64,000 bases of DNA, taken from Brachyhypopomus gauderio (taxonomy: Eukaryota > Chordata > Actinopteri > Gymnotiformes > Hypopomidae). Both the position numbers and the translations under genes were made by a program. Every line of letters begins with the position of its first letter. Position 1 is the stretch's first letter. Positions 2,681-52,561 of the stretch are shown here, piece after piece. Below the pieces are notes generated by a model. It worked only from the letters and a program-made list of their open reading frames with translations. It was not told the origin of the DNA and did no database searches. The stretch covers positions 124,001-188,000 of the forward strand of contig NW_027506963.1 of NCBI RefSeq assembly GCF_052324685.1. The letters are read 5' to 3'.

Positions 2681-3332
2681 ACTCTTTCCTGATACTTGTG
2701 TGTTGTGAATCTGTTCTCCTGGTTCCTGAAGTGTTCACTTAGGGTGACCGGATCAGAGATGGTGAAAAAGAGGCATATAGTTGATATTTATATGAAAAAG
2801 CTTTACTGGCCCTTAACAAACACTGCAGAAAAAAACACTGCCCTTAAAGGCTATTTGAACTCTTTTACATTTAAAATGTGCAAAACACAATTATACATTT
2901 CCATGACATTCTGTGCTGTGATAAATCATGTGTGGCTCTTTCTCATCAAGTCAAAGTGTTTGTGTTCTTCTTTTCAATGTTTGTCCTTACAAAATAAAAA
3001 TGGTAGCCTAAAAAATAAATACAAAATTTAAAAATATTCTTTGTATTGGCACAAAATTAGTCATTTAAAAAATTGTACACTAAGCCTATGGCTGATACTT
3101 TTCAGTCCACCTCATATTGGGCGTATTTTTCAGCAGACTGAATCTTTCCCAACAGTTGACGATTACTCATCATACTTCAGTTTTACTATTAGCTTACTAT
3201 TACATCATACTTCAGTGACATGAGATAAGCATGTTAGGTCTCATTGGTGACCCACATGAGGTGAGGTGATGGGGTGAGGTAACCATCACCCTTCCTCTTC
3301 GTCATCGGGCCAAGGTCTCCTTGTTCTCCAGA
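2681..3332. other. AT-rich intergenic stretch with a GGGTGACC repeat scrap
   Basis: Around 2735 there is a TTAGGGTGACCGGATC motif followed by a purine-rich GTGAAAAAGAGG run, the wording of the ends of some fish hAT-like repeats and similar to the start of the composite repeat at 4801. Unit 3 (from 51448) has ~15 extra bases after GAGG, so units 1 and 2 share a deletion or unit 3 an insertion. I see no gene in the rest. Confidence 0.4.
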
Positions 3333-3389
3333 TGTACCATTCTGACGCAAGATCAGTCCATCAGTGCAGACAAGCCTAGTAGTTTTCTT

Positions 3390-3848
3390 GTGAAGTCCTC
3401 CACCAGCGAGCTGCTCACCTGCCTGGGTGAGTTCCTGTGCCGACGTTCCTGTCTGCTGAAGGACCTCTCTGCCCATGAGCCCTTGCAGTGTGTTCGCAGT
3501 GTGGACCGCTCCTTGACACTGACAGGATGGCAACAGCAAGGCTTCTTCACTCCAGGCACCGTGGTCTTCCTCTACATGCTGTGTCGTGACATCGTTTCAG
3601 CTGAGGTGGCCACCAAGGAGGAGCTGCAGGCCGTGCTGCTCACCGGTTTGTACGTGTCTTTCTCCTTTGACTGTCATGAGATCAGCTACCCAGACAAACC
3701 TTTCCTGCTGGAAGAAAATAGAGGGGCCTTTTGGACCCGAGCCCTGGAAATCGTGAACCGGATGAGTGGCAAGATGCTGCATATTAATAACAACCTGCAG
3801 TATTTTGGACAGATCTTCAATGACCTCAAGAACAGGGTAGATAATTAA
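3390..3848 (+). CDS. CDK5 activator (p35/p39)-like CDK5-binding domain, orphan 3' exon or processed remnant
   Basis: The plus-strand frame encodes ~152 residues that follow the cyclin-like CDK5-binding domain of CDK5R1/CDK5R2. Visible blocks are [86 protein letters not shown] and [10 protein letters not shown]. In this family the domain activates the neuronal kinase CDK5. The N-terminal p10 half with its myristoylation signal is not visible upstream, and no in-frame ATG precedes the domain; 3390 is a GTG where homology begins. A pyrimidine-rich CTCCAG at 3328-3333 could be a splice acceptor. The stop (3846-3848) comes about a dozen residues earlier than in p35, and AATAAA follows at 3852-3857. 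By eye alignment, p35 Asp259 is Thr and Ser270 is Gly here, while Asn266 is kept. It could be a diverged paralogue exon or a domain-only pseudogene. Confidence 0.8.
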
Positions 3849-17049: not shown

Positions 17050-17548
17050 CATGCAGATGGGGCAGATGGAGCAGAGGGGCAGATGGGCCAGATGGAGCAG
17101 AGGGGTAGATGGAGCAGAGGGGCAGCTAGAGCAGAGGGGCAGATGGAACAGAGGGGCAGATGGGGCAGATGGAGAAGAGGGGCAGATGGAGCAGAGGGGC
17201 AGATGGAGCAGAGGGGCAGATGGGGCAAAGGGGCAGATGAGGGAGATGGGCAAATGGGGCAGATAGAGCAGAGGGGCAGATGAGGGAGAGGGGCAAATGG
17301 GGCAGACAGAGCAGAGGGGCAGATGGGGCAGATAGAGCAGAGGGGCAGATGAGGGAGAGGGGCAAATGGGGCAGATGGAGCAGAGGGGCTGATGGGGCAG
17401 ATGGAGTAGAGGGGGCCGATGGAGCAGAGGGTCAAATGGGGCAAATGGAACAGAGGGGCAGATGAGGGAGAGGGGCAAATGGGGCAGATAGAGCAGAGGG
17501 GCAGATGGAGCAGAGGGGGTGATGGAGCAGAGGGGCAGATGGAGCAGA
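17050..17548 (+). repeat. Purine-rich minisatellite (GGGGCAGATGGAGCAGA-type)
   Basis: About 500 bp of tandem variants built from GGGGCAGATG and GAGCAGA blocks with higher-order copies of ~75-80 bp (GATGAGGGAGAGGGGCAAATG recurs four times). The G-rich strand is the plus strand. Unit 2 has 77 bp less (41443-41869), a loss or gain of whole repeat blocks. Long frames on either strand here are artefacts of the repeat. Confidence 0.92.
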
Positions 17549-18000: not shown

Positions 18001-18279
18001 GTGTGTATGTGCGCTTCTGTGATGCGGGACACCAATGTTTTCACGAGGAGCTGTCTACAGGGTTTTGAGACTGCTCGGGCGCAAAAGATGGCTCATTATT
18101 TTAACTCAACAAATTCTCTGTAGTGTAACATGGAGAGTATATTTCTTCAATTTTGTGGTTTAGTGCCATATGTTCATATTAATGTGCTGTCATTCATATT
18201 TTAGCGTGGTCACTGTTAATTGATTTAAGTGCAAAACCTCTGACTTTAAAACATTTCAGTAATAAACCAGAACTCGCAG

Positions 18280-21200
18280 ATGATGAACTCTCAACAGCAG
18301 CTGCAGTTCCCCATCTCCGAGGACGCTGCCTACTTCCTTCCAGCTGGACAGGTAATGCTAATGATAGTGTTCAACGTGAATTTAAAAACACCTTGTTACC
18401 TTTCCAAGCTGAAATGATTAGTGTGTGTGTGTCGTAGTACTACCCTCAGTACGTGTCCTTGGCCCAGCAGTTCCCTGTGGTCTATCCTGACTGGAGCTCT
18501 GCATACGGTGAGGAGAGGCTTTTAACTCAACATAGATTTTGTTAAATGTTAAATGGCCAGTGTAAATGAAGGAGAAAAAAAATGGGGTGGAGCCTAAGGT
18601 TTTATCTGATTGTGCCTTGTTTTCTCCAGGTGAGCCGTATTATTACCCTACGCAGGCCCAGTACCTTTCTTCAGGGCCAACTACACCCATCATATTGAGC
18701 TCTGCCCTGCAGCAGCAGGCCCCACCCCCTCAGTATGCCCTGCCCCAGCAGTTCCCTGTAGCCAATGAGCCCACGGGTTTCTACTATGGCACCTATCTTG
18801 ACTGGAGCTCTGCGTACGGTGAGGAGAGGCTCTTAACTCAACATAGATTTTGTTAAATGTTAAATGGCCAGTGTAAATGAAGGAGAAAAAAAGACTTCTT
18901 TTCCCTCTCCACATTGGGGTGGAGCCTAAGGTGTTATCTGATTGTGCCTTGTCTCCTCCAGGTGAGCCGTATTATTACCCTACGCAGGCCCAGTACCTTT
19001 CTTCAGGGCCAACTACACCCATCATACTGAGCTCTGCCCTGCAACAGCAGGCCCCACCCCCTCAGTATGCTCTGCCCCAGCAGTTCCCTGTAGCCAATGA
19101 GCCCACGGGTTTCTACTATGGCACCTATGCTGACTGGAGCTCTGCGTACGGTGAGGAGAGGCTCTTAACTCAACATAGATTTTGTTAAATGTTAAATGGC
19201 CAGTGTAAATGAAGGAGAAAAAAAATGGGGTGGAGCCTAAGGTTTTATCTGATTGTGCCTTGTTTTCTCCAGGTGAGCCGTATTATTACCCTACGCAGGC
19301 CCAGTACCTTTCTTCAGGGCCAACTACACCCATCATACTGAGCTCTGCCCTGCAGCAGCAGGCCCCACCCCCTCAGTATGCCCCGCCCCAGCAGTTCCCT
19401 GTAGCCAATGAGCCCACGGGTTTCTACTATGGCACCTATGCTGACTGGAGCTCTGCATACGGTGAGGAGAGGCTCTTAACTCAACATAGATTTTGTTAAA
19501 TGTTAAATGGCCAGTGTAAATGAAGGAGAAAAAAAGACTTCCTTTCCCTCTCCACATTGGGGTGGAGCCTAAGGTGTTATCTGATTGTGCCTTGTTTCCT
19601 CCAGGTGTGCCGTATTACCCTACGCAGGACCAGTACCAGTCTTCAGGGCCCATCATATTGAGCTCTGCCCTGCAGCAGCAGGCCCCACCCCCTCAGTATG
19701 CCCTGCCCCAACAGCGCAGGAGAGAGTGCCAGCAGGTGAGGAGCTGGAAAGGTTGCCTGCTTGAACCTGGTCTCACTCCCAAAAACCATGTCCCACAGAT
19801 TAGAATACCAGAACCCAAACAGGGTGGATGTGATGTCACGGAAGAGATTATGTCCGGGGCAAGAAACGCATCTACGCCCACACCCATTCAGCTGAGCTCA
19901 ATACGAAAGGCCTATGTATATGCTTACATTACGTTAAAATGTTTGTAATTGCTCCAAATTTGACAATGTTCCCCACTCTTTTCCTCAGACTGTGGTCGCA
20001 GTGCAGACCGATGATGAAAGCACGCCACCTACAGCTACTGTAGTGATTCCACCCGGTAAGTGTGTTTTCTTAATGTTATTATATCATGTTTTTGTATTTT
20101 ATTAACTTGGAAACCGAATTGAAATTGCACCTTGTTCAGATGACCATGGGAAACCTGTGTCTATGCCAGCAGCTGCCTCAACCCCCCCGCCTCCATCTAA
20201 GGTGCCCGAGCTGGTGGTTCCTTCAAAACTGACAACGGAGCCTAACCTGTCCCAGGGTCTCCAACTGGCCTCACCACTGAGCACAGTGCCTGTTGGACAA
20301 GACTCCGATTTCGGAGCGTCTGCCTCCCCGCCACCTCCTCTGACGGACCTTCCTCCAGCAGACATCCCTGCTCTTGAGCCCAAGATGGGTGAGAGTATGG
20401 ATGCGCCATTGGTATCGGAAGCAGTGCCCCAAGCAGAGAAGGAGCCTGTTGAGGCCCCTTTGGAGCCAGAGGTATGTGCTACTTCTGCTGATGGGCCGAA
20501 AGCTGAAAACATCTACATTTGGCAAATGTCTATCCAAAGCCAAAATTGCAGTCGCTGCCATTGCTATTCGACCAGTTTCCATAGTTGAACATGTACAAGG
20601 GGTAATGTCATGTCAGAGTTGGAGGAAATTCAGACAAAGAGCGCAATCCTCACTAATATTTAAGGCAGATATAGTGGGGATGTATACAACTCTATTGTTT
20701 TTGAAGAAATTGTTTTTGGGACAGTCTCTGTTTGCATTAATGAGTCTTAAGAGACTCTGTCATACAGGAGAGAAACCTGTTGAATTAGCATTTTTTGACT
20801 TTGCCAAAACTATTTTTCCAGATATATTTGTCATCTTTGAAGTTTTCTTAAAAATATTTAAAAGTCTCGTCTCGTTATCGTGAACCCAATATCATGTCTC
20901 GTCTTTTGAGATGAGTGCCACACTTTGGACACTCCTGCTTTAAAGGCACATGTAAATGGACATTCTACATTGTAGAGCATCATGGGATTTGCTCTAGAGT
21001 CTAGATTGTTTACTAGCCATGCTGGTGTTGTTGGTTTATGCTAGTTTCACTTGGAGCTGTTGGTTACACCCTTAGTGTGAATTATAGGGGACTTAGTTGA
21101 GCTGATTGTCTTAATTAAGATTGCCCCCCCACCCCCCCTCCAGCCTCCAGTTTCGAGGTCCTCACAGTGCCAGCGCAAAAGTCCACGCAAGATCATCACC

Positions 21201-21862
21201 AGTGTCTCATTCAGCAACGACATCCAGCTGAACAAGGCGGAGAAGGCGTGGAGGCCCTCAATGAAGAAGGTGCGCGCCCACAAGGCTGAAGCTGACGAGG
21301 AGAACCTGGAGGTGGCCAAGACCCTGGACCTGCTGCGACGTGTGCGCAGCATCCTGAACAAGCTCACGCCACAGATGTTCCAGCCACTGATGAAGCAGCT
21401 GACGGAGCTGAGCATGGACACGGAGGAGCGGCTCAAGGGAGTCGTCGATCTCGTATATGAGAAGGCCATCTCTGAGCCCAAGTTCTCCGTGACTTATGCT
21501 AAATTGTGTCGCTGCCTGATGATGGTGAGTGTGCACATGCCCACGCGCGAATGGCCAGTTCCACATGTGACCTCTATCTTGTCCCATGTGTTTCTGCAGC
21601 TAAACTGCACCAATGGGACTGAGGAGTTCAGGAGGTTGTTCATGTTTTGTTTATTGTTAAAGCTGGACACTGTAATGCATGCATTTCACCAAGTGTTCAG
21701 AAACAGCAACTGCCCTCCCAAGACTTCTGATTGGTCAGAAAGGGAGGAATGAACTGCTTTGATCTGTGTCCTCTGTCCGTGCTGTGCAATTACTGGCCAA
21801 GGACACAGAATAATGAAAGAGCATAATTTAGCAGAGTGTCTGAAGAGATCTATCTATCTATA

Positions 21863-21927
<65 letters not shown>

Positions 21928-23479
21928 GTCTGTCTGTACGTCTGACTGACTGACTGACTGTCTGACTGATGCCAATGTACATAAATTAACAAAAGGCAAC
22001 TTTTTCTTATCTGTGATGGCAGTTAAAGTAGTATGTGTTGAGCAGTGATATTTCAAGCTTATCCTAAATTTGCACACAGGTCAGAAAGCAAAATTTGCAC
22101 CCTGGCTACATTCATCTGTGTTAATGTTGCTAGTCATGAAAAAACCTCTTATTCACTTGTGCTTGTTGCTTGCTCTTCATGGTACCCAGCTGAAAGTGCC
22201 CACCTCTGATAAGTCAGGAGGCACAGTGAATTTTGGAAGGCTGCTGCTCAATTGCTGCCAGAAGGAGTTTGCGAAGGACAAGGACAGCAACGAGCGCAAG
22301 CAGAAGGAGCTGGAAGCCGCATCAGAGGTGCGACAGTCTCACCATCTTGATAGTGCACCTTCCCTCCAAGTGCACATCATTGGATGTGTATTGTTAGAGT
22401 GAAGTCCAGTCGTTTTAGTCGTGTTAAATGTGCCGTATATCCGGGCCTCGTCTCGTGTTAACGCCAACCCCCGATATTTCCCGCCAGGATGAGGAGCGTC
22501 AGCGCCTGATCGAGGAGCTGGACGCCATGAAGGACGAGGCCCGCCACCGTTCCCTCGGTAACATCAAGTTTATCGGGGAGCTGTTTAAGGTGGAGATGCT
22601 GTCGGAGCTTATATTGCATGACTGTATAGTCAAGCTGCTCCAGAAGAGCCACAGCGAGGAAAGACTAGAGTGTCTCTGCATCCTACTCTCCACCATTGGC
22701 AAGGACATCGAGAAGGCCAAGGTATCATGCGCTTATGTTCCTCCTACCTGGCTGTTAACTCTTGGCGGTAGTTTTTACCAGGCAGTAGCCACACGCATGC
22801 TAACGAGAGTCTTGTTTTTGACTAATCAGCCCAAAATGGACCACTATTGCAGCTACATAAGCAAAATAATAAACGCGAGGAAGTCCTCATTGAGGATCCG
22901 CTGCAAACTGCAAGATGTCCTGGACCTCAGACAGGTAAGTGTTACACACCCATCCGTTGGACTTCTTCAGTGTCTCTACAAATGTTTCCTTGCTTTCATT
23001 AATTTATACTCGAATGCTTACTGTACAAGTATAGTTTATAGAACAGCCGTTGACCAGCTTCAGTATTTGAGTGTGGAGGTTTCATTGCTAGTCATGCAGA
23101 GGTGGTTGGACTGCTTTCCTTTTGCAGGTTTGCTTTTCTTAATTGCCCATCCTGACAAGGTGGCTGCCGTGTTGAATGCATTTTGAAAGCGCTCCTCTCT
23201 TTCCAACTACGGTAGAATAACTGGGTGCCCCGGAGGGGTGACCAGGGCCCCAAGACCATCGTCGAGATCCACAAAGAGGCAAACTTGGAGGAGCAGAGGG
23301 AGCAGATCAAGGTACCTGAGCAGCTCCTGTCTAAAAAGGACTCCAGTCGGGCGTGTTGGTCGCGACGGGGCCCACCCGTCCGGAGGCCGCATCACCCAAC
23401 ATCAGGAAGATGCCTGGAATTCGGTGCCCATCATTACCAAGACCAGGGTCCCGGCGGGTCCTTTAAAAGGCTTAAATAA
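18280..23479 (+). CDS. eIF4G-like translation factor, truncated, MIF4G-containing
   Basis: Fourteen plus-strand coding exons: 18280-18351, 18438-18507, 18630-18818, 18962-19150, 19273-19461, 19605-19735, 19799-19891, 19989-20055, 20140-20471, 21144-21524, 22190-22327, 22488-22721, 22830-22934, 23216-23479. They predict ~817 residues. The first exon starts with tandem ATGs after acceptor TTTCAG. Residues ~25-280 are Q/P/Y-rich; ~281-311 ([20 protein letters not shown]) match the eIF4G segment bound by PABP; ~506-730 are MIF4G ([38 protein letters not shown]), which binds eIF4A and eIF3 in the family. The [14 protein letters not shown] block follows. No eIF4E-binding YxxxxLxx segment lies between exons ending 20471 and starting 21144, and MA3/W2 are absent. 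Oddities: CT instead of GT after 19891, and a frameshift near 23354. Confidence 0.85.
18630..19461 (+). repeat. Three tandem 189-bp coding exons with duplicated introns
   Basis: Exons 18630-18818, 18962-19150 and 19273-19461 each encode the same 63 residues ([17 protein letters not shown] to [12 protein letters not shown]) with one or two changes (LDWSS in the first, QYAPPQQ in the third). Flanking introns are near-identical too and alternate between a form with and a form without CTTCTTTTCCCTCTCCACAT, so the larger repeat period is 643 bp. Every exon is phase 1-1, so copy number can change without shifting frame. The next exon (19605) is a diverged, shorter relative. Confidence 0.92.
19799..19891 (+). 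CDS. Exon with PABP-binding-type segment and a non-canonical donor
   Basis: The 31 codons ([20 protein letters not shown] through STPTPIQ) match the most conserved N-terminal block of eIF4G1/3 ([20 protein letters not shown]), part of or adjacent to the mapped PABP-binding site. The acceptor is CCCACAG. The bases after CAG are CTGAGC instead of GTGAGC, so the donor is lost. A cryptic TAT|GTATAT 24 bases on would add eight residues (LSSIRKAY) and keep phase 0. Confidence 0.8.
20472..21143 (+). other. Intron lacking the expected eIF4E-binding exons
   Basis: In eIF4G1/3 several exons between these points encode the KRRRKIKELNKKE and YDREFLLGF segments. This 672-bp intron contains neither in any plus-strand frame that I can read, only AT-rich sequence. 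The same holds for 44788-45459. Confidence 0.7.
21144..23311 (+). CDS. MIF4G domain exons of the eIF4G-like gene
   Basis: Five exons with clean GT-AG junctions, all in phase 0, encode [20 protein letters not shown] (pre-MIF4G conserved block), [92 protein letters not shown] and [12 protein letters not shown]. No stop interrupts the domain in either unit. The unit 2 equivalent is 45460-47635. This HEAT-repeat fold is the eIF4A-binding core of the family. Confidence 0.9.
21850..21926. repeat. (CTAT)n tetranucleotide repeat
   Basis: About 19 units of CTAT, then CTGT and GACT variants, in the intron between MIF4G exons 1 and 2. It is 8 bp longer in unit 2 (46166-46251). Confidence 0.93.
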
Positions 23480-23480
23480 A
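23475..23480 (+). terminator. AATAAA overlapping the predicted stop codon
   Basis: The TAA stop of the shifted tail (23477-23479) lies inside AATAAA. If used, the transcript would end shortly after; unit 2 has the same at 47799-47804. Use is inference. Confidence 0.35.
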
Positions 23481-27061: not shown

Positions 27062-27771
27062 ACTCTTTCCTGATACTTGTGTGTTGTGAATCTGTTCTCC
27101 TGGTTCCTGAAGTGTTCACTTAGGGTGACCGGATCAGAGATGGTGAAAAAGAGGCATATAGTTGATATTTATATGAAAAAGCTTTACTGGCCCTTAACAA
27201 ACACTGCAGAAAAAAAACACTGCCCTTAAAGGCTATTTGAACTCTTTTACATTTAAAATGTGCAAAACACAATTATACATTTCCATGACATTCTGTGCTG
27301 TGATAAATCATGTGTGGCTCTTTCTCATCAAGTCAAAGTGTTTGTGTTCTTCTTTTCAATGTTTGTCCTTACAAAATAAAAATGGTAGCCTAAAAAATAA
27401 ATACAAAATTTAAAAATATTCTTTGTATTGGCACAAAATTAGTCATTTAAAAAATTGTACACTAAGCCTATGGCTGATACTTTTCAGTCCACCTCATATT
27501 GGGCGTATTTTTCAGCAGACTGAATCTTTCCCAACAGTTGACGATTACTCATCATACTTCAGTTTTACTATTAGCTTACTATTACATCATACTTCAGTGA
27601 CATGAGATAAGCATGTTAGGTCTCATTGGTGACCCACATGAGGTGAGGTGATGGGGTGAGGTAACCATCACCCTTCCTCTTCGTCATCGGGCCAAGGTCT
27701 CCTTGTTCTCCAGATGTACCATTCTGACGCAAGATCAGTCCATCAGTGCAGACAAGCCTAGTAGTTTTCTT

Positions 27772-28230
27772 GTGAAGTCCTCCACCAGCGAGCTGCTCAC
27801 CTGCCTGGGTGAGTTCCTGTGCCGACGTTCCTGTCTGCTGAAGGACCTCTCTGCCCATGAGCCCTTGCAGTGTGTTCGCAGTGTGGACCGCTCCTTGACA
27901 CTGACAGGATGGCAACAGCAAGGCTTCTTCACTCCAGGCACCGTGGTCTTCCTCTACATGCTGTGTCGTGACATCGTTTCAGCTGAGGTGGCCACCAAGG
28001 AGGAGCTGCAGGCCGTGCTGCTCACCGGTTTGTACGTGTCTTTCTCCTTTGACTGTCATGAGATCAGCTACCCAGACAAACCTTTCCTGCTGGAAGAAAA
28101 TAGAGGGGCCTTTTGGACCCGAGCCCTGGAAATCGTGAACCGGATGAGTGGCAAGATGCTGCATATTAATAACAACCTGCAGTATTTTGGACAGATCTTC
28201 AATGACCTCAAGAACAGGGTAGATAATTAA
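27772..28230 (+). CDS. CDK5 activator-like domain, unit 2
   Basis: This copy has the same 152-residue reading as 3390-3848, open throughout, again with no ATG in frame upstream and AATAAA at 28234-28239. The upstream stretch with the possible CTCCAG acceptor is identical to unit 1. See 3390-3848 for domain evidence. Confidence 0.8.
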
Positions 28231-40552: not shown

Positions 40553-41442
40553 GTATGTATGTCTTTTGGACTTTTAGCGCTAAGGATTTCTGACGTTCCT
40601 TTGACTTTAATTATAGTGCTTGAAAAGCCCTATATTGTTATTCCTTTTCTCCAAATTTCTGCAATTAATGCGGCCCGAACCGCTTAACGTACAGACTCCG
40701 TTCGAACTGCGTTTCGAAGGTCTCGGCTCTGTGTGGTGTGCTATCCGTTTTTGGAGTCGATTAGAGTTATAGATTTTAATAGAATTGAGTTTAAAATGAA
40801 AAATGGCCCTATTAAAATGAATGGTGGAAGGTTCAGAATTTCAAATCATCACTGCCAGTTAGAGTGTGAGCTGGCATAAAAAATGATCAAAACGTTCTTG
40901 GATAAACTGCTGTAAAATCCTTACACCTTGACCTAGAAGCTCCATTTAAATTTTAAATGTGAGAGAAACTTGTCCTTTCTGGCACGCCGAGATATCTAAT
41001 CATTTGATGAATTAGTTTTAGAGTTATGAGCATTTGTTTGGCACTAGACACAGAAAACTGCCCCATTGGCCCCCATATAAATATATCAGAATCAGAATCA
41101 GCTTTGTTGAGATTTTTGTGTGTTTTTAACTTGTCATAAATCAGTCATTTTTGGGTCAAACCACACCAATATATATCAAAATCATCAGCAAGGGGTCCTC
41201 TCTCACACAATCTCTTCGGTGAAGCGATAGGTTAAATGGGTCCCGAACTACGACCGTTTGATCGGAGGGTGCAAATCACATAAAACAAGGCTTCTCCACT
41301 CAGAGTGGCAGAGACAGAGTGTCAGTTATTTTTGAATGTCTCTCCCCCTCCCCCACACACGCACGCGCACACACATGCATCTCTCATAACCACTACACAC
41401 AGTCACACACATATACACCACACAGACACACACACATACATA

Positions 41443-41869
41443 CATGCAGATGGGGTAGATGGAGCAGAGGGGCAGATGGGCCAGATGGAGAAGAGGGGCA
41501 GATGGAGCAGAGGGGCAGATGGAGCAGAGGGGCAGATGGGGCAAAGGGGCAGATGAGGGAGATGGGCAAATGGGGCAGATAGAGCAGAGGGGCAGATGAG
41601 GGAGAGGGGCAAATGGGGCAGACAGAGCAGAGGGGCAGATGGGGCAGATAGAGCAGAGGGGCAGATGAGGGAGAGGGGCAAATGGGGCAGATGGAGCAGA
41701 GGGGCTGATGGGGCAGATGGAGTAGAGGGGGCCGATGGAGCAGAGGGTCAAATGGGGCAAATGGAACAGAGGGGCAGATGAGGGAGAGGGGCAAATGGGG
41801 CAGATAGAGCAGAGGGGCAGATGGAGCAGAGGGGGTGATGGAGCAGAGGGGCAGATGGAGCAGAGGGGG
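41443..41869 (+). repeat. Purine-rich minisatellite, unit 2
   Basis: Copy of 17050-17548, shorter by 77 bp near its 5' end. Confidence 0.92.
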
Positions 41870-42595: not shown

Positions 42596-45500
42596 ATGAT
42601 GAACTCTCAACAGCAGCTGCAGTTCCCCATCTCCGAGGACGCTGCCTACTTCCTTCCAGCTGGACAGGTAATGCTAATGATAGTGTTCAACGTGAATTTA
42701 AAAACACCTTGTTACCTTTCCAAGCTGAAATGATTAGTGTGTGTGTGTCGTAGTACTACCCTCAGTACGTGTCCTTGGCCCAGCAGTTCCCTGTGGTCTA
42801 TCCTGACTGGAGCTCTGCATACGGTGAGGAGAGGCTTTTAACTCAACATAGATTTTGTTAAATGTTAAATGGCCAGTGTAAATGAAGGAGAAAAAAAATG
42901 GGGTGGAGCCTAAGGTTTTATCTGATTGTGCCTTGTTTTCTCCAGGTGAGCCGTATTATTACCCTACGCAGGCCCAGTACCTTTCTTCAGGGCCAACTAC
43001 ACCCATCATATTGAGCTCTGCCCTGCAGCAGCAGGCCCCACCCCCTCAGTATGCCCTGCCCCAGCAGTTCCCTGTAGCCAATGAGCCCACGGGTTTCTAC
43101 TATGGCACCTATCTTGACTGGAGCTCTGCGTACGGTGAGGAGAGGCTCTTAACTCAACATAGATTTTGTTAAATGTTAAATGGCCAGTGTAAATGAAGGA
43201 GAAAAAAAGACTTCTTTTCCCTCTCCACATTGGGGTGGAGCCTAAGGTGTTATCTGATTGTGCCTTGTCTCCTCCAGGTGAGCCGTATTATTACCCTACG
43301 CAGGCCCAGTACCTTTCTTCAGGGCCAACTACACCCATCATACTGAGCTCTGCCCTGCAACAGCAGGCCCCACCCCCTCAGTATGCTCTGCCCCAGCAGT
43401 TCCCTGTAGCCAATGAGCCCACGGGTTTCTACTATGGCACCTATGCTGACTGGAGCTCTGCGTACGGTGAGGAGAGGCTCTTAACTCAACATAGATTTTG
43501 TTAAATGTTAAATGGCCAGTGTAAATGAAGGAGAAAAAAAATGGGGTGGAGCCTAAGGTTTTATCTGATTGTGCCTTGTTTTCTCCAGGTGAGCCGTATT
43601 ATTACCCTACGCAGGCCCAGTACCTTTCTTCAGGGCCAACTACACCCATCATACTGAGCTCTGCCCTGCAGCAGCAGGCCCCACCCCCTCAGTATGCCCC
43701 GCCCCAGCAGTTCCCTGTAGCCAATGAGCCCACGGGTTTCTACTATGGCACCTATGCTGACTGGAGCTCTGCGTACGGTGAGGAGAGGCTCTTAACTCAA
43801 CATAGATTTTGTTAAATGTTAAATGGCCAGTGTAAATGAAGGAGAAAAAAAGACTTCCTTTCCCTCTCCACATTGGGGTGGAGCCTAAGGTGTTATCTGA
43901 TTGTGCCTTGTTTCCTCCAGGTGTGCCGTATTACCCTACGCAGGACCAGTACCAGTCTTCAGGGCCCATCATATTGAGCTCTGCCCTGCAGCAGCAGGCC
44001 CCACCCCCTCAGTATGCCCTGCCCCAACAGCGCAGGAGAGAGTGCCAGCAGGTGAGGAGCTGGAAAGGTTGCCTGCTTGAACCTGGTCTCACTCCCAAAA
44101 ACCATGTCCCACAGATTAGAATACCAGAACCCAAACAGGGTGGATGTGATGTCACGGAAGAGATTATGTCCGGGGCAAGAAACGCATCTACGCCCACACC
44201 CATTCAGCTGAGCTCAATACGAAAGGCCTATGTATATGCTTACATTACGTTAAAATGTTTGTAATTGCTCCAAATTTGACAATGTTCCCCACTCTTTTCC
44301 TCAGACTGTGGTCGCAGTGCAGACCGATGATGAAAGCACGCCACCTACAGCTACTGTAGTGATTCCACCCGGTAAGTGTGTTTTCTTAATGTTATTATAT
44401 CATGTTTTTGTATTTTATTAACTTGGAAACCGAATTGAAATTGCACCTTGTTCAGATGACCATGGGAAACCTGTGTCTATGCCAGCAGCTGCCTCAACCC
44501 CCCCGCCTCCATCTAAGGTGCCCGAGCTGGTGGTTCCTTCAAAACTGACAACGGAGCCTAACCTGTCCCAGGGTCTCCAACTGGCCTCACCACTGAGCAC
44601 AGTGCCTGTTGGACAAGACTCCGATTTCGGAGCGTCTGCCTCCCCGCCACCTCCTCTGACGGACCTTCCTCCAGCAGACATCCCTGCTCTTGAGCCCAAG
44701 ATGGGTGAGAGTATGGATGCGCCATTGGTATCGGAAGCAGTGCCCCAAGCAGAGAAGGAGCCTGTTGAGGCCCCTTTGGAGCCAGAGGTATGTGCTACTT
44801 CTGCTGATGGGCCGAAAGCTGAAAACATCTACATTTGGCAAATGTCTATCCAAAGCCAAAATTGCAGTCGCTGCCATTGCTATTCGACCAGTTTCCATAG
44901 TTGAACATGTACAAGGGGTAATGTCATGTCAGAGTTGGAGGAAATTCAGACAAAGAGCGCAATCCTCACTAATATTTAAGGCAGATATAGTGGGGATGTA
45001 TACAACTCTATTGTTTTTGAAGAAATTGTTTTTGGGACAGTCTCTGTTTGCATTAATGAGTCTTAAGAGACTCTGTCATACAGGAGAGAAACCTGTTGAA
45101 TTAGCATTTTTTGACTTTGCCAAAACTATTTTTCCAGATATATTTGTCATCTTTGAAGTTTTCTTAAAAATATTTAAAAGTCTCGTCTCGTTATCGTGAA
45201 CCCAATATCATGTCTCGTCTTTTGAGATGAGTGCCACACTTTGGACACTCCTGCTTTAAAGGCACATGTAAATGGACATTCTACATTGTAGAGCATCATG
45301 GGATTTGCTCTAGAGTCTAGATTGTTTACTAGCCATGCTGGTGTTGTTGGTTTATGCTAGTTTCACTTGGAGCTGTTGGTTACACCCTTAGTGTGAATTA
45401 TAGGGGACTTAGTTGAGCTGATTGTCTTAATTAAGATTGCCCCCCCACCCCCCCTCCAGCCTCCAGTTTCGAGGTCCTCACAGTGCCAGCGCAAAAGTCC

Positions 45501-46163
45501 ACGCAAGATCATCACCAGTGTCTCATTCAGCAACGACATCCAGCTGAACAAGGCGGAGAAGGCGTGGAGGCCCTCAATGAAGAAGGTGCGCGCCCACAAG
45601 GCTGAAGCTGACGAGGAGAACCTGGAGGTGGCCAAGACCCTGGACCTGCTGCGACGTGTGCGCAGCATCCTGAACAAGCTCACGCCACAGATGTTCCAGC
45701 CACTGATGAAGCAGCTGACGGAGCTGAGCATGGACACGGAGGAGCGGCTCAAGGGAGTCGTCGATCTCGTATATGAGAAGGCCATCTCTGAGCCCAAGTT
45801 CTCCGTGACTTATGCTAAATTGTGTCGCTGCCTGATGATGGTGAGTGTGCACATGCCCACGCGCGAATGGCCAGTTCCACATGTGACCTCTATCTTGTCC
45901 CATGTGTTTCTGCAGCTAAACTGCACCAATGGGACTGAGGAGTTCAGGAGGTTGTTCATGTTTTGTTTATTGTTAAAGCTGGACACTGTAATGCATGCAT
46001 TTCACCAAGTGTTCAGAAACAGCAACTGCCCTCCCAAGACTTCTGATTGGTCAGAAAGGGAGGAATGAACTGCTTTGATCTGTGTCCTCTGTCCATGCTG
46101 TGCAATTACTGGCCAAGGACACAGAATAATGAAAGAGCATAATTTAGCAGAGTGTCTGAAGAG

Positions 46164-46251
<88 letters not shown>

Positions 46252-47803
46252 GTCTGTCTGTACGTCTGACTGACTGACTGACTGTCTGACTGATGCCAAT
46301 GTACATAAATTAACAAAAGGCAACTTTTTCTTATCTGTGATGGCAGTTAAAGTAGTATGTGTTGAGCAGTGATATTTCAAGCTTATCCTAAATTTGCACA
46401 CAGGTCAGAAAGCAAAATTTGCACCCTGGCTACATTCATCTGTGTTAATGTTGCTAGTCATGAAAAAACCTCTTATTCACTTGTGCTTGTTGCTTGCTCT
46501 TCATGGTACCCAGCTGAAAGTGCCCACCTCTGATAAGTCAGGAGGCACAGTGAATTTTGGAAGGCTGCTGCTCAATTGCTGCCAGAAGGAGTTTGCGAAG
46601 GACAAGGACAGCAACGAGCGCAAGCAGAAGGAGCTGGAAGCCGCATCAGAGGTGCGACAGTCTCACCATCTTGATAGTGCACCTTCCCTCCAAGTGCACA
46701 TCATTGGATGTGTATTGTTAGAGTGAAGTCCAGTCGTTTTAGTCGTGTTAAATGTGCCGTATATCCGGGCCTCGTCTCGTGTTAACGCCAACCCCCGATA
46801 TTTCCCGCCAGGATGAGGAGCGTCAGCGCCTGATCGAGGAGCTGGACGCCATGAAGGACGAGGCCCGCCACCGTTCCCTCGGTAACATCAAGTTTATCGG
46901 GGAGCTGTTTAAGGTGGAGATGCTGTCGGAGCTTATATTGCATGACTGTATAGTCAAGCTGCTCCAGAAGAGCCACAGCGAGGAAAGACTAGAGTGTCTC
47001 TGCATCCTACTCTCCACCATTGGCAAGGACATCGAGAAGGCCAAGGTATCATGCGCTTATGTTCCTCCTACCTGGCTGTTAACTCTTGGCGGTAGTTTTT
47101 ACCAGGCAGTAGCCACACGCATGCTAACGAGAGTCTTGTTTTTGACTAATCAGCCCAAAATGGACCACTATTGCAGCTACATAAGCAAAATAATAAACGC
47201 GAGGAAGACCTCATTGAGGATCCGCTGCAAACTGCAAGATGTCCTGGACCTCAGACAGGTAAGTGTTACACACCCATCCGTTGGACTTCTTCAGTGTCTC
47301 TACAAATGTTTCCTTGCTTTCATTAATTTATACTCGAATGCTTACTGTACAAGTATAGTTTATAGAACAGCCGTTGACCAGCTTCAGTATTTGAGTGTGG
47401 AGGTTTCATTGCTAGTCATGCAGAGGTGGTTGGACTGCTTTCCTTTTGCAGGTTTGCTTTTCTTAATTGCCCATCCTGACAAGGTGGCTGCCGTGTTGAA
47501 TGCATTTTGAAAGCGCTCCTCTCTTTCCAACTACGGTAGAATAACTGGGTGCCCCGGAGGGGTGACCAGGGCCCCAAGACCATCGTCGAGATCCACAAAG
47601 AGGCAAACTTGGAGGAGCAGAGGGAGCAGATCAAGGTACCTGAGCAGCTCCTGTCTAAAAAGGACTCCAGTCGGGCGTGTTGGTCGCGACGGGGCCCACC
47701 CGTCCGGAGGCCGCATCACCCAACATCAGGAAGATGCCTGGAATTCGGTGCCCATCATTACCAAGACCAGGGTCCCGGCGGGTCCTTTAAAAGGCTTAAA
47801 TAA
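42596..47803 (+). CDS. eIF4G-like translation factor, unit 2
   Basis: Second complete copy with exons 42596-42667, 42754-42823, 42946-43134, 43278-43466, 43589-43777, 43921-44051, 44115-44207, 44305-44371, 44456-44787, 45460-45840, 46514-46651, 46812-47045, 47154-47258, 47540-47803. The product differs from unit 1 by one residue that I noticed (exon 14 ARKTSLRIR, unit 1 ARKSSLRIR; Thr is the usual eIF4G residue). It shares the CT donor after 44207 and the frameshift past MIF4G, so both defects predate the unit 1/2 split. Domain evidence is as for 18280-23479. Confidence 0.85.
42946..43777 (+). repeat. Three tandem 189-bp coding exons, unit 2
   Basis: Same three-exon array as 18630-19461; one synonymous-looking difference at the end of the third copy (GCGTACG here, GCATACG in unit 1). 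Confidence 0.92.
46166..46251. repeat. (CTAT)n tetranucleotide repeat, unit 2
   Basis: Longer, purer allele of 21850-21926. Confidence 0.93.
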
Positions 47804-51385: not shown

Positions 51386-52102
51386 ACTCTTTCCTGATAC
51401 TTGTGTGTTGTGAATCTGTTCTCCTGGTTCCTGAAGTGTTCACTTAGGGTGACCGGATCAGAGATGGTGAAAAAGAGGACACCTCAGCGTGGGCATATAG
51501 TTGATATTTATATGAAAATGCTTTACTGGCCCTTAACAAACACTGCAGGAAAAAAACACTGCCCTTAAAGGCTATTTGAACTCTTTTACATTTAAAATGT
51601 GCAAAACACAATTATACATTTCCATGACATTCTGTGCTGTGATAAATCATGTGTGGCTCTTTCTCATCAAGTCAAAGTGTTTGTGTTCTTCTTTTCAATG
51701 TTTGTCCTTACAAAATAAAAATGGTAGCCTAAAAAATAAATACAAAATTTAAAAATATTCTTTGTATTGGCACAAAATTAGTCATTTAAAAAATTGTACA
51801 CTAAGCCTATGGCTGATACTTTTCAGTCCACCTCATATTGGGCGTATTTTTCAGCAGACTGAATCTTTCCCAACAGTTGACGATTACTCATCATACTTCA
51901 GTTTTACTATTAGCTTACTATTACATCATACTTCAGTGACATGAGATAAGCATGTTAGGTCTCATTGGTGACCCACATGAGGTGAGGTGATGGGGTGAGG
52001 TAACCATCACCCTTCCTCTTCGTCATCGGGCCAAGGTCTCCTTGTTCTCCAGATGTACCATTCTGACGCAAGATCAGTGCAGACAAGCCTAGTAGTTTTC
52101 TT

Positions 52103-52561
52103 GTGAAGTCCTCCACCAGCGAGCTGCTCACCTGCCTGGGTGAGTTCCTGTGCCGACGTTCCTGTCTGCTGAAGGACCTCTCTGCCCATGAGCCCTTGCA
52201 GTGTGTTCGCAGTGTGGACCGCTCCTTGACACTGACAGGATGGCAACAGCAAGGCTTCTTCACTCCAGGCACCGTGGTCTTCCTCTACATGCTGTGTCGT
52301 GACATCGTTTCAGCTGAGGTGGCCACCAAGGAGGAGCTGCAGGCCGTGCTGCTCACCGGTTTGTACGTGTCTTTCTCCTTTGACTGTCATGAGATCAGCT
52401 ACCCAGACAAACCTTTCCTGCTGGAAGAAAATAGAGGGGCCTTTTGGACCCGAGCCCTGGAAATCGTGAACCGGATGAGTGGCAAGATGCTGCATATTAA
52501 TAACAACCTGCAGTATTTTGGACAGATCTTCAATGACCTCAAGAACAGGGTAGATAATTAA
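52103..52561 (+). CDS. CDK5 activator-like domain, unit 3
   Basis: The domain reads the same 152 residues as in units 1 and 2. Just upstream this unit lacks 8 bp (one of two overlapping ATCAGT-type direct repeats, near 52077), which shifts the frame between the possible CTCCAG acceptor and the domain. If that stretch were translated in units 1 and 2, unit 3 would be broken; if translation begins inside the domain or from the nearer CAG at the repeat, it would not matter. AATAAA lies at 52565-52570. Confidence 0.78.

What the first reader, a model, noticed from the sequence alone, without database searches (positions are those of the whole stretch)
18280..23479. eIF4G-derived gene with a PAIP1-like architecture
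The predicted product keeps the conserved PABP-binding-type segment and a full MIF4G domain. It lacks the eIF4E-binding segment, MA3 and W2. PAIP1 combines PABP contacts with a MIF4G domain and no eIF4E contact; this gene reaches a similar plan by truncating eIF4G. If expressed it could compete with eIF4G for PABP and eIF4A/eIF3 and so alter cap-dependent translation. Being tandemly amplified makes dosage effects plausible.
Basis: partly seen in the sequence, partly recalled or inferred. Interest (0 to 1): 0.85.

Follow-up and report, generated by a model that had tools for sequence, protein, structure and literature searches.

The report
Amplified, truncated eIF4G1 gene family
A shortened copy of a core protein-synthesis gene, reduced mainly to its helicase-binding middle domain, has multiplied to dozens of copies in this animal genome and its middle domain seems to have been kept by selection after the shortening; its PABP-binding piece has probably been lost from the message.

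Summary
Window 18280-23479 fits a 14-exon, 817-codon partial DNA copy (introns kept) of an eIF4G1-type gene on contig C19, with a complete MIF4G domain (residues 508-732) and without eIF4E-binding or MA3 exons (W2 not searched by profile). The array exceeds the window: at least 88 array-type MIF4G second halves on 8 contigs, 19 with the first half too.

The PAIP1-like reading holds only in part. The exon with the PABP-binding segment has lost its splice donor (CAG|CTGAGC; parent CAG|GTGAGC) in all 12 longer copies examined and both C20 relatives. No good replacement donor was found and skipping keeps frame, so the segment is probably not translated. The MIF4G matches eIF4G1 (E 7e-131), not PAIP1 (1.7e-5).

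It is probably not a plain pseudogene: after truncation its MIF4G exons evolved with dN/dS about 0.18 on the array branch (neutrality rejected, p 3e-4 to 6e-4). On the C20 branch neutrality is not rejected. Among recent copies exons and introns differ about equally, so present constraint is not shown. Best reading: a multi-copy eIF4A-binding HEAT-1 module, competitor or cap-independent helper. Expression is untested.

The parts
18280..18351 (+). exon 1, first Met 18280; joined to sequence from far upstream in the parent, cutting into a parental coding exon
18438..18507 (+). exon 2
18630..18818 (+). exon 3, first of three near-identical 63-codon exons, each a fusion of two parental exons, phase 1-1
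   Evidence: by exact start motif 3 repeats in 7 and 2 repeats in 2 of the 9 copies whose repeat block was fetched whole, all open (the other 3 of 12 are cut by the fetch)
18962..19150 (+). exon 4, second repeat
19273..19461 (+). exon 5, third repeat
19605..19735 (+). exon 6
19799..19891 (+). exon 7: PABP-binding segment, 31 codons; donor destroyed (CAG|CTGAGC)
19989..20055 (+). exon 8
20140..20471 (+). exon 9; shortened by deletion and joined to what reads as the donor of a later parental exon (DAFKE|GTATGG)
21144..21524 (+). exon 10, start of MIF4G
22190..22327 (+). exon 11, MIF4G
22488..22721 (+). exon 12, MIF4G
22830..22934 (+). exon 13, MIF4G
23216..23479 (+). exon 14: follows the MIF4G match, then a tail frameshifted by a 2-base deletion near 23350; stop 23477-23479 overlapping AATAAA at 23475-23480
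   Evidence: AATAAA present in all 12 copies and both C20 copies
42596..47803 (+). second copy of the gene in the window, 2 exonic base differences from the first (at 19457 and 22884 of the first copy)
18053..18256 (+). upstream block matching parent.fa positions 27754-27837 and 28042-28159, next to a stretch of raised CpG (o/e 1.07-1.18; other stretches of the parent are as high); promoter origin is a guess

Best explanation
It is a multi-copy, protein-coding, shortened eIF4G1 paralogue. A partial DNA copy of an eIF4G1-type gene lost the eIF4E-binding exons and everything after MIF4G that I could test for, acquired its own stop and poly(A) signal, and was later amplified. Its product is in effect a HEAT-1/MIF4G module behind a tyrosine- and glutamine-rich repeated N-terminus. 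Inferred mechanism: it binds eIF4A, and perhaps eIF3/40S, through MIF4G without bringing in the cap complex, so it competes with full-length eIF4G or feeds eIF4A to cap-independent initiation, with copy number setting dose. Shown: structure, open frames, amplification, a codon signature of selection on MIF4G after truncation. Inferred: transcription, exon 7 skipping, partners, effect on translation.
For: Complete MIF4G at E 1.9e-49 and eIF4G1 match at E 7.1e-131. In exons 6-14 of all 12 longer copies examined: AG/GT at every junction but the exon-7 donor, and no indel or stop. Relatives on C20 share the exon-7 donor loss and the exon-14 frameshift, so the C20 and array terminal branches lie after truncation. 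On MIF4G exons 10-13, 257 codons: array omega 0.18-0.19, omega=1 rejected with p 2.8e-4 to 5.6e-4 in the three taxon sets (2dlnL 12.9); array and C20 together p 2.5e-8 to 1.5e-7. Array against C20, codon positions 1+2 differ at 66/524 and position 3 at 60/262 (p 3e-4; outside CpG 49/458 against 43/222, p 0.003). Length differences inside exons 6-13 in the alignment are 9, 15, 6, 9 and 3 bases (not counting the edges of C20's own large deletion, which leaves the frame intact, and two compensating 2-base gaps in exon 12). [quoted passage not shown]
Against: No transcript or protein evidence. Among recent copies exons differ about as much as introns (12/1745 against 16/1995 for the most distant of 12), and 9 of 16 distinct coding differences are nonsynonymous. 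On the C20 branch neutrality is not rejected alone (omega 0.39-0.50; 2dlnL 2.99, p 0.10-0.23), and polarised counts over exons 6-8 and 10-13 are flat across codon positions there (25, 22, 24; array branch 15, 16, 26). 34 of 166 MIF4G residues invariant in three canonical paralogues are changed in the array protein. Zero stops is unremarkable under a neutral simulation (P 0.13-0.25 array, 0.10-0.19 C20). Outgroup branches are saturated in the codon model (C16 10.7-13.3 where included), and gene conversion between paralogues could disturb it. Exon third positions differ about 3 times as often as introns, also in the C19-C13 control, which remains unexplained.
Confidence: 0.55

Rival explanations
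1. A once-functional truncated gene that is now a passively amplified repeat: most units are gene fragments, and the array spreads as satellite-like DNA.
For: 69 of 88 second-half copies have no first-half match (counted; a few may be cut by contig ends), and units of about 4.8 kb carry only the 3' part in tandem where sequence was fetched; no constraint detectable among recent copies; broken exon-7 donor in all 12 examined; flat codon-position counts on the C20 branch.
Against: All 88 second-half MIF4G matches carry no stop, though divergence is too low for this to weigh much; frames of exons 6-14 intact in 12 of 12 longer copies; selection on the branch leading to the array.
Confidence: 0.3
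2. A PAIP1-like PABP bridge: exon 7 is used through a weak cryptic donor (for instance after 19915, adding 8 codons in frame) and the protein contacts PABP, eIF4A and eIF3.
For: Exon 7 open, in-frame cryptic GT present, segment still recognisable against 4f02 at E 2.5e-4; the intron stretch behind exon 7 is nearly identical between array and C20 (2/97).
Against: Cryptic donor scores 1.0 bit against 10.8 for the parental donor, recalled matrix; exon 7 differences 9 nonsynonymous, 0 synonymous; core residues changed (parent [18 protein letters not shown], here [18 protein letters not shown]).
Confidence: 0.12
3. The array acts as RNA (source of antisense or small RNAs against the parental eIF4G1) and the protein is irrelevant.
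For: High copy number and tandem arrangement.
Against: Identity to the parent mostly 75-85%, poor for small-RNA silencing (general knowledge); codon-level selection.
Confidence: 0.03

Closest known systems
eIF4G1 (parent-type gene, C19; human chain 8oz0_2)
   Same: MIF4G sequence, exon order, PABP-segment exon, alignable introns
   Different: lacks eIF4E-binding exons and MA3; repeated N-terminal exons; frameshifted tail; many copies
PAIP1
   Same: MIF4G without eIF4E contact or MA3/W2 (family knowledge, recalled)
   Different: MIF4G matches eIF4G1 at 7.1e-131 and PAIP1 only at 1.7e-5, over 507-602; PABP segment is of eIF4G type and probably spliced out
DAP5/eIF4G2
   Same: eIF4G relative without eIF4E binding (recalled); MIF4G match 2.3e-38
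   Different: DAP5 keeps MA3 and W2 (recalled); no MA3 here
EIF4G1 listed on the microB chromosome of Astyanax mexicanus (PMC7509943, Table 2; passage and section 6, part 1 of 2)
   Same: an extra EIF4G1-derived sequence reported outside the standard chromosomes of a fish
   Different: one table line in a list the authors call high integral genes, no gene structure in the text read; here 29 of 88 copies lie on C5, a 36-Mb scaffold, and 1 on C1

Membership tests
eIF4G family | eIF4G-type MIF4G/HEAT-1 domain | tested here: met
eIF4G family | eIF4E-binding motif | tested here: not met
   parental exon lies in a deleted stretch, no match in the window or the fetched array loci
eIF4G family | MA3 domain (vertebrate members, recalled) | tested here: not met
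   no MA3 match on C119, C5, C154, C164, C451, C659, C661 among 16 in the genome
eIF4G family | W2 domain (vertebrate members, recalled) | tested here: inconclusive
   profile search unanswered; parent.fa 42760-50000 matches the window only in a 90-base stretch taken for a repeat, and I did not locate W2 in it
PAIP1 | PAIP1-type MIF4G as best match | tested here: not met
   eIF4G1 7.1e-131, PAIP1 1.7e-5
PAIP1 | PABP-binding motifs PAM1 and PAM2 in the protein (recalled) | tested here: inconclusive
   only an eIF4G-type PABP segment, in an exon without a donor; a weak AxxFxP element in exon 1 noticed by eye only
PAIP1 | binding to PABP, eIF4A, eIF3 | not testable with these tools
   needs protein experiments
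processed pseudogene | introns lost | tested here: not met
   introns retained and partly alignable to parental introns

The most novel reading that the evidence does not exclude
An amplified, dose-dependent eIF4G-derived translation modifier kept by genetic conflict or germline function: a selfishly amplified truncated initiation factor, co-amplified in the 24-kb unit with a fragment of a CDK5 activator, that skews translation in germ cells.
Probability: 0.1. Interest if true: 0.85.

Novelty: new variant of a known kind. Interest (0 to 1): 0.52.

Why it matters
If expressed, it would be a genome (by gene content a vertebrate, inferred) carrying up to dozens of copies of a free-standing eIF4A-binding module of eIF4G, with copy number as a possible dose control. 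It makes the question of how cells tolerate excess HEAT-1 module directly testable, and it parallels ampliconic gene families under conflict.

Tried and rejected
Positive selection from exon-biased divergence: array against C20 exons differ at 161/1225 sites and introns at 84/1219 (outside CpG 10.7% against 4.7%), and the contrast follows exon boundaries (32 of 2284 circular shifts reach it, all within 30 bases of the true place). I rejected the reading because third positions carry much of the excess and the control pair C19-C13 shows a similar ratio (third position 12.9%, intron 4.8%; array-C20 22.9% and 7.9%).

Neutral-stop argument: simulated on MIF4G, the mean number of stops is 1.4-2.3 per branch, so zero proves little.

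Structure prediction was not used: the spliced protein is not a letter-for-letter translation of contiguous DNA, so I did not submit it. The whole-genome DNA search for all copies did not complete, so copy counts rest on the MIF4G profile search, which scored 150 of 158 candidates. A purely B-chromosomal location is unlikely: 29 of 88 copies lie on C5, 0.28-0.52 Mb, a 36-Mb scaffold; what C5 is, is not known. Papers; I saw titles and starts of abstracts of the rows listed (for example 15 of 747, 12 of 280, 8 of 111), and apart from PMC7509943 none of those describes an amplified eIF4G. Passages of PMC4703368 on HEAT-1 mutants were read and not used.

Full report
What is there. The window is G000:C119:124001-188000 of a 796.5-Mb assembly in 840 contigs. 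It consists of a direct repeat of about 24.3-24.4 kb. Two eIF4G-like gene copies lie in it, at 18280-23479 and 42596-47803. Alignment to an eIF4G1-type gene on contig C19 gives a 14-exon model of 817 codons with no internal stop. Introns are kept and partly alignable, so this is a DNA copy, not a retrocopy. Identity to the parent is 75-78% in the longer aligned blocks and up to 90% in short pieces.

How it was made. The parental coding start is lost: upstream sequence joins into the middle of a parental exon just before Met 18280. Two parental exons are fused into one 63-codon exon, present three times here; of the 9 copies whose repeat block was fetched whole, 7 have three and 2 have two. The end of the acidic exon is deleted and re-joined to what reads as the donor of a later exon, and the exons holding the eIF4E site are deleted. 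A 2-base deletion shifts the frame after MIF4G; the stop overlaps an AATAAA, present in all 12 longer copies and both C20 copies.

Domains. Pfam finds only MIF4G, complete, E 1.9e-49. Against solved structures the best match is human eIF4G1, E 7.1e-131; PAIP1 is 1.7e-5; the PABP-binding peptide of 4f02 matches residues 280-304 at 2.5e-4. Of 16 MA3 matches in the genome none lies on C119, C5, C154, C164, C451, C659 or C661; the one on C1 is 21 Mb from the array copy there. The W2 search did not complete.

The PABP exon. In the parent the exon ends CAG|GTGAGC; in all 12 longer copies it is CAG|CT, and CAG|CTGAGC in both C20 copies. The best in-frame alternative donor scores 1.0 bit, the parental one 10.8 (recalled matrix). 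The exon is 93 bases and skipping keeps frame. Between array and C20 it has 9 nonsynonymous and 0 synonymous differences, against 74:46 in MIF4G (p 0.026). I conclude that the segment is probably not in the protein; only cDNA can show it.

Extent. Of 140 MIF4G matches, 88 are array-type second halves (C5 29, C164 19, C154 15, C451 9, C659 7, C119 5, C661 3, C1 1), 19 are array-type first halves, and 33 belong to other loci (and the listing). These are lower bounds. Outside C119 most neighbouring copies are about 4.8 kb apart, and among those fetched the 4.8-kb units hold only the 3' part of the gene. The 12 longer copies examined differ from the first by at most 12/1745 in exons 6-14 and 16/1995 in introns.

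Relatives. Two loci on C20, 68 kb apart and 0.3-1.2% different, share the fused exons, the donor loss and the tail frameshift, and have a further in-frame deletion. C77 holds a near copy interrupted in exon 10. C13 is a separate relative of C19, 7-9% different.

Selection. On 257 MIF4G codons, branch models give omega 0.18-0.19 on the array branch and 0.39-0.50 on C20, against 0.01-0.09 for the background. Neutrality is rejected for the array alone (p 2.8e-4 to 5.6e-4) and for both together (p 2.5e-8 to 1.5e-7), not for C20 alone (p 0.10-0.23) nor for the stem (2dlnL 2.73). The array and C20 branches postdate truncation. Exons 6-9 show no such constraint (28 nonsynonymous, 5 synonymous; against MIF4G p 0.013). 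Results against: polarised counts on the C20 branch are flat across codon positions (25, 22, 24), no constraint is visible among recent copies, 34 of 166 otherwise invariant residues are changed, the stop count is uninformative and outgroup branches are saturated.

Mechanism. PMC10948362 (passages) describes HEAT-1 as an eIF4A-binding domain and the core of eIF4F, with eIF4F contacting eIF3 and eS7. A protein with HEAT-1 but no cap link would compete with eIF4G for eIF4A or support cap-independent initiation. Which of these holds is inference.

Literature. PMC7509943 (section 6, part 1 of 2) lists EIF4G1 among genes on the microB of Astyanax mexicanus. In the rows listed by searches I saw no paper on such an array; the library lacks most subscription journals.

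Noticed in passing
window 27652-28230 (also 3270-3848 and 52067-52561): The units also hold an intronless fragment of a CDK5 activator (Pfam CDK5_activator, E 3.1e-63 for the second copy, C-terminal half), 61% identical to a cdk5r-type gene on C2. Array-type fragments: C119 5, C164 4, C5 2, C1 1, and a short one on C154. The third window copy is frameshifted near its start.
   Followed up: partly
G000 C23, C156, C181, C249, C353, C364, C476, C625, C813, C1:4.88-4.95M: A second amplified family of CDK5 activator fragments (profile 268-321), 28 matches.
   Followed up: no
window 17059-17504 and 41409-41820: Minisatellite of 8-9/17-base units upstream of each gene copy.
   Followed up: no
window 18312-18350: Exon 1 reads [12 protein letters not shown], a weak PAM2-like AxxFxP element (PAM2 recalled), similar in the parent; noticed by eye, untested.
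   Followed up: no
array against C20, and C19 against C13: Exon third positions differ about 3 times as often as introns in both pairs; cause unknown.
   Followed up: partly
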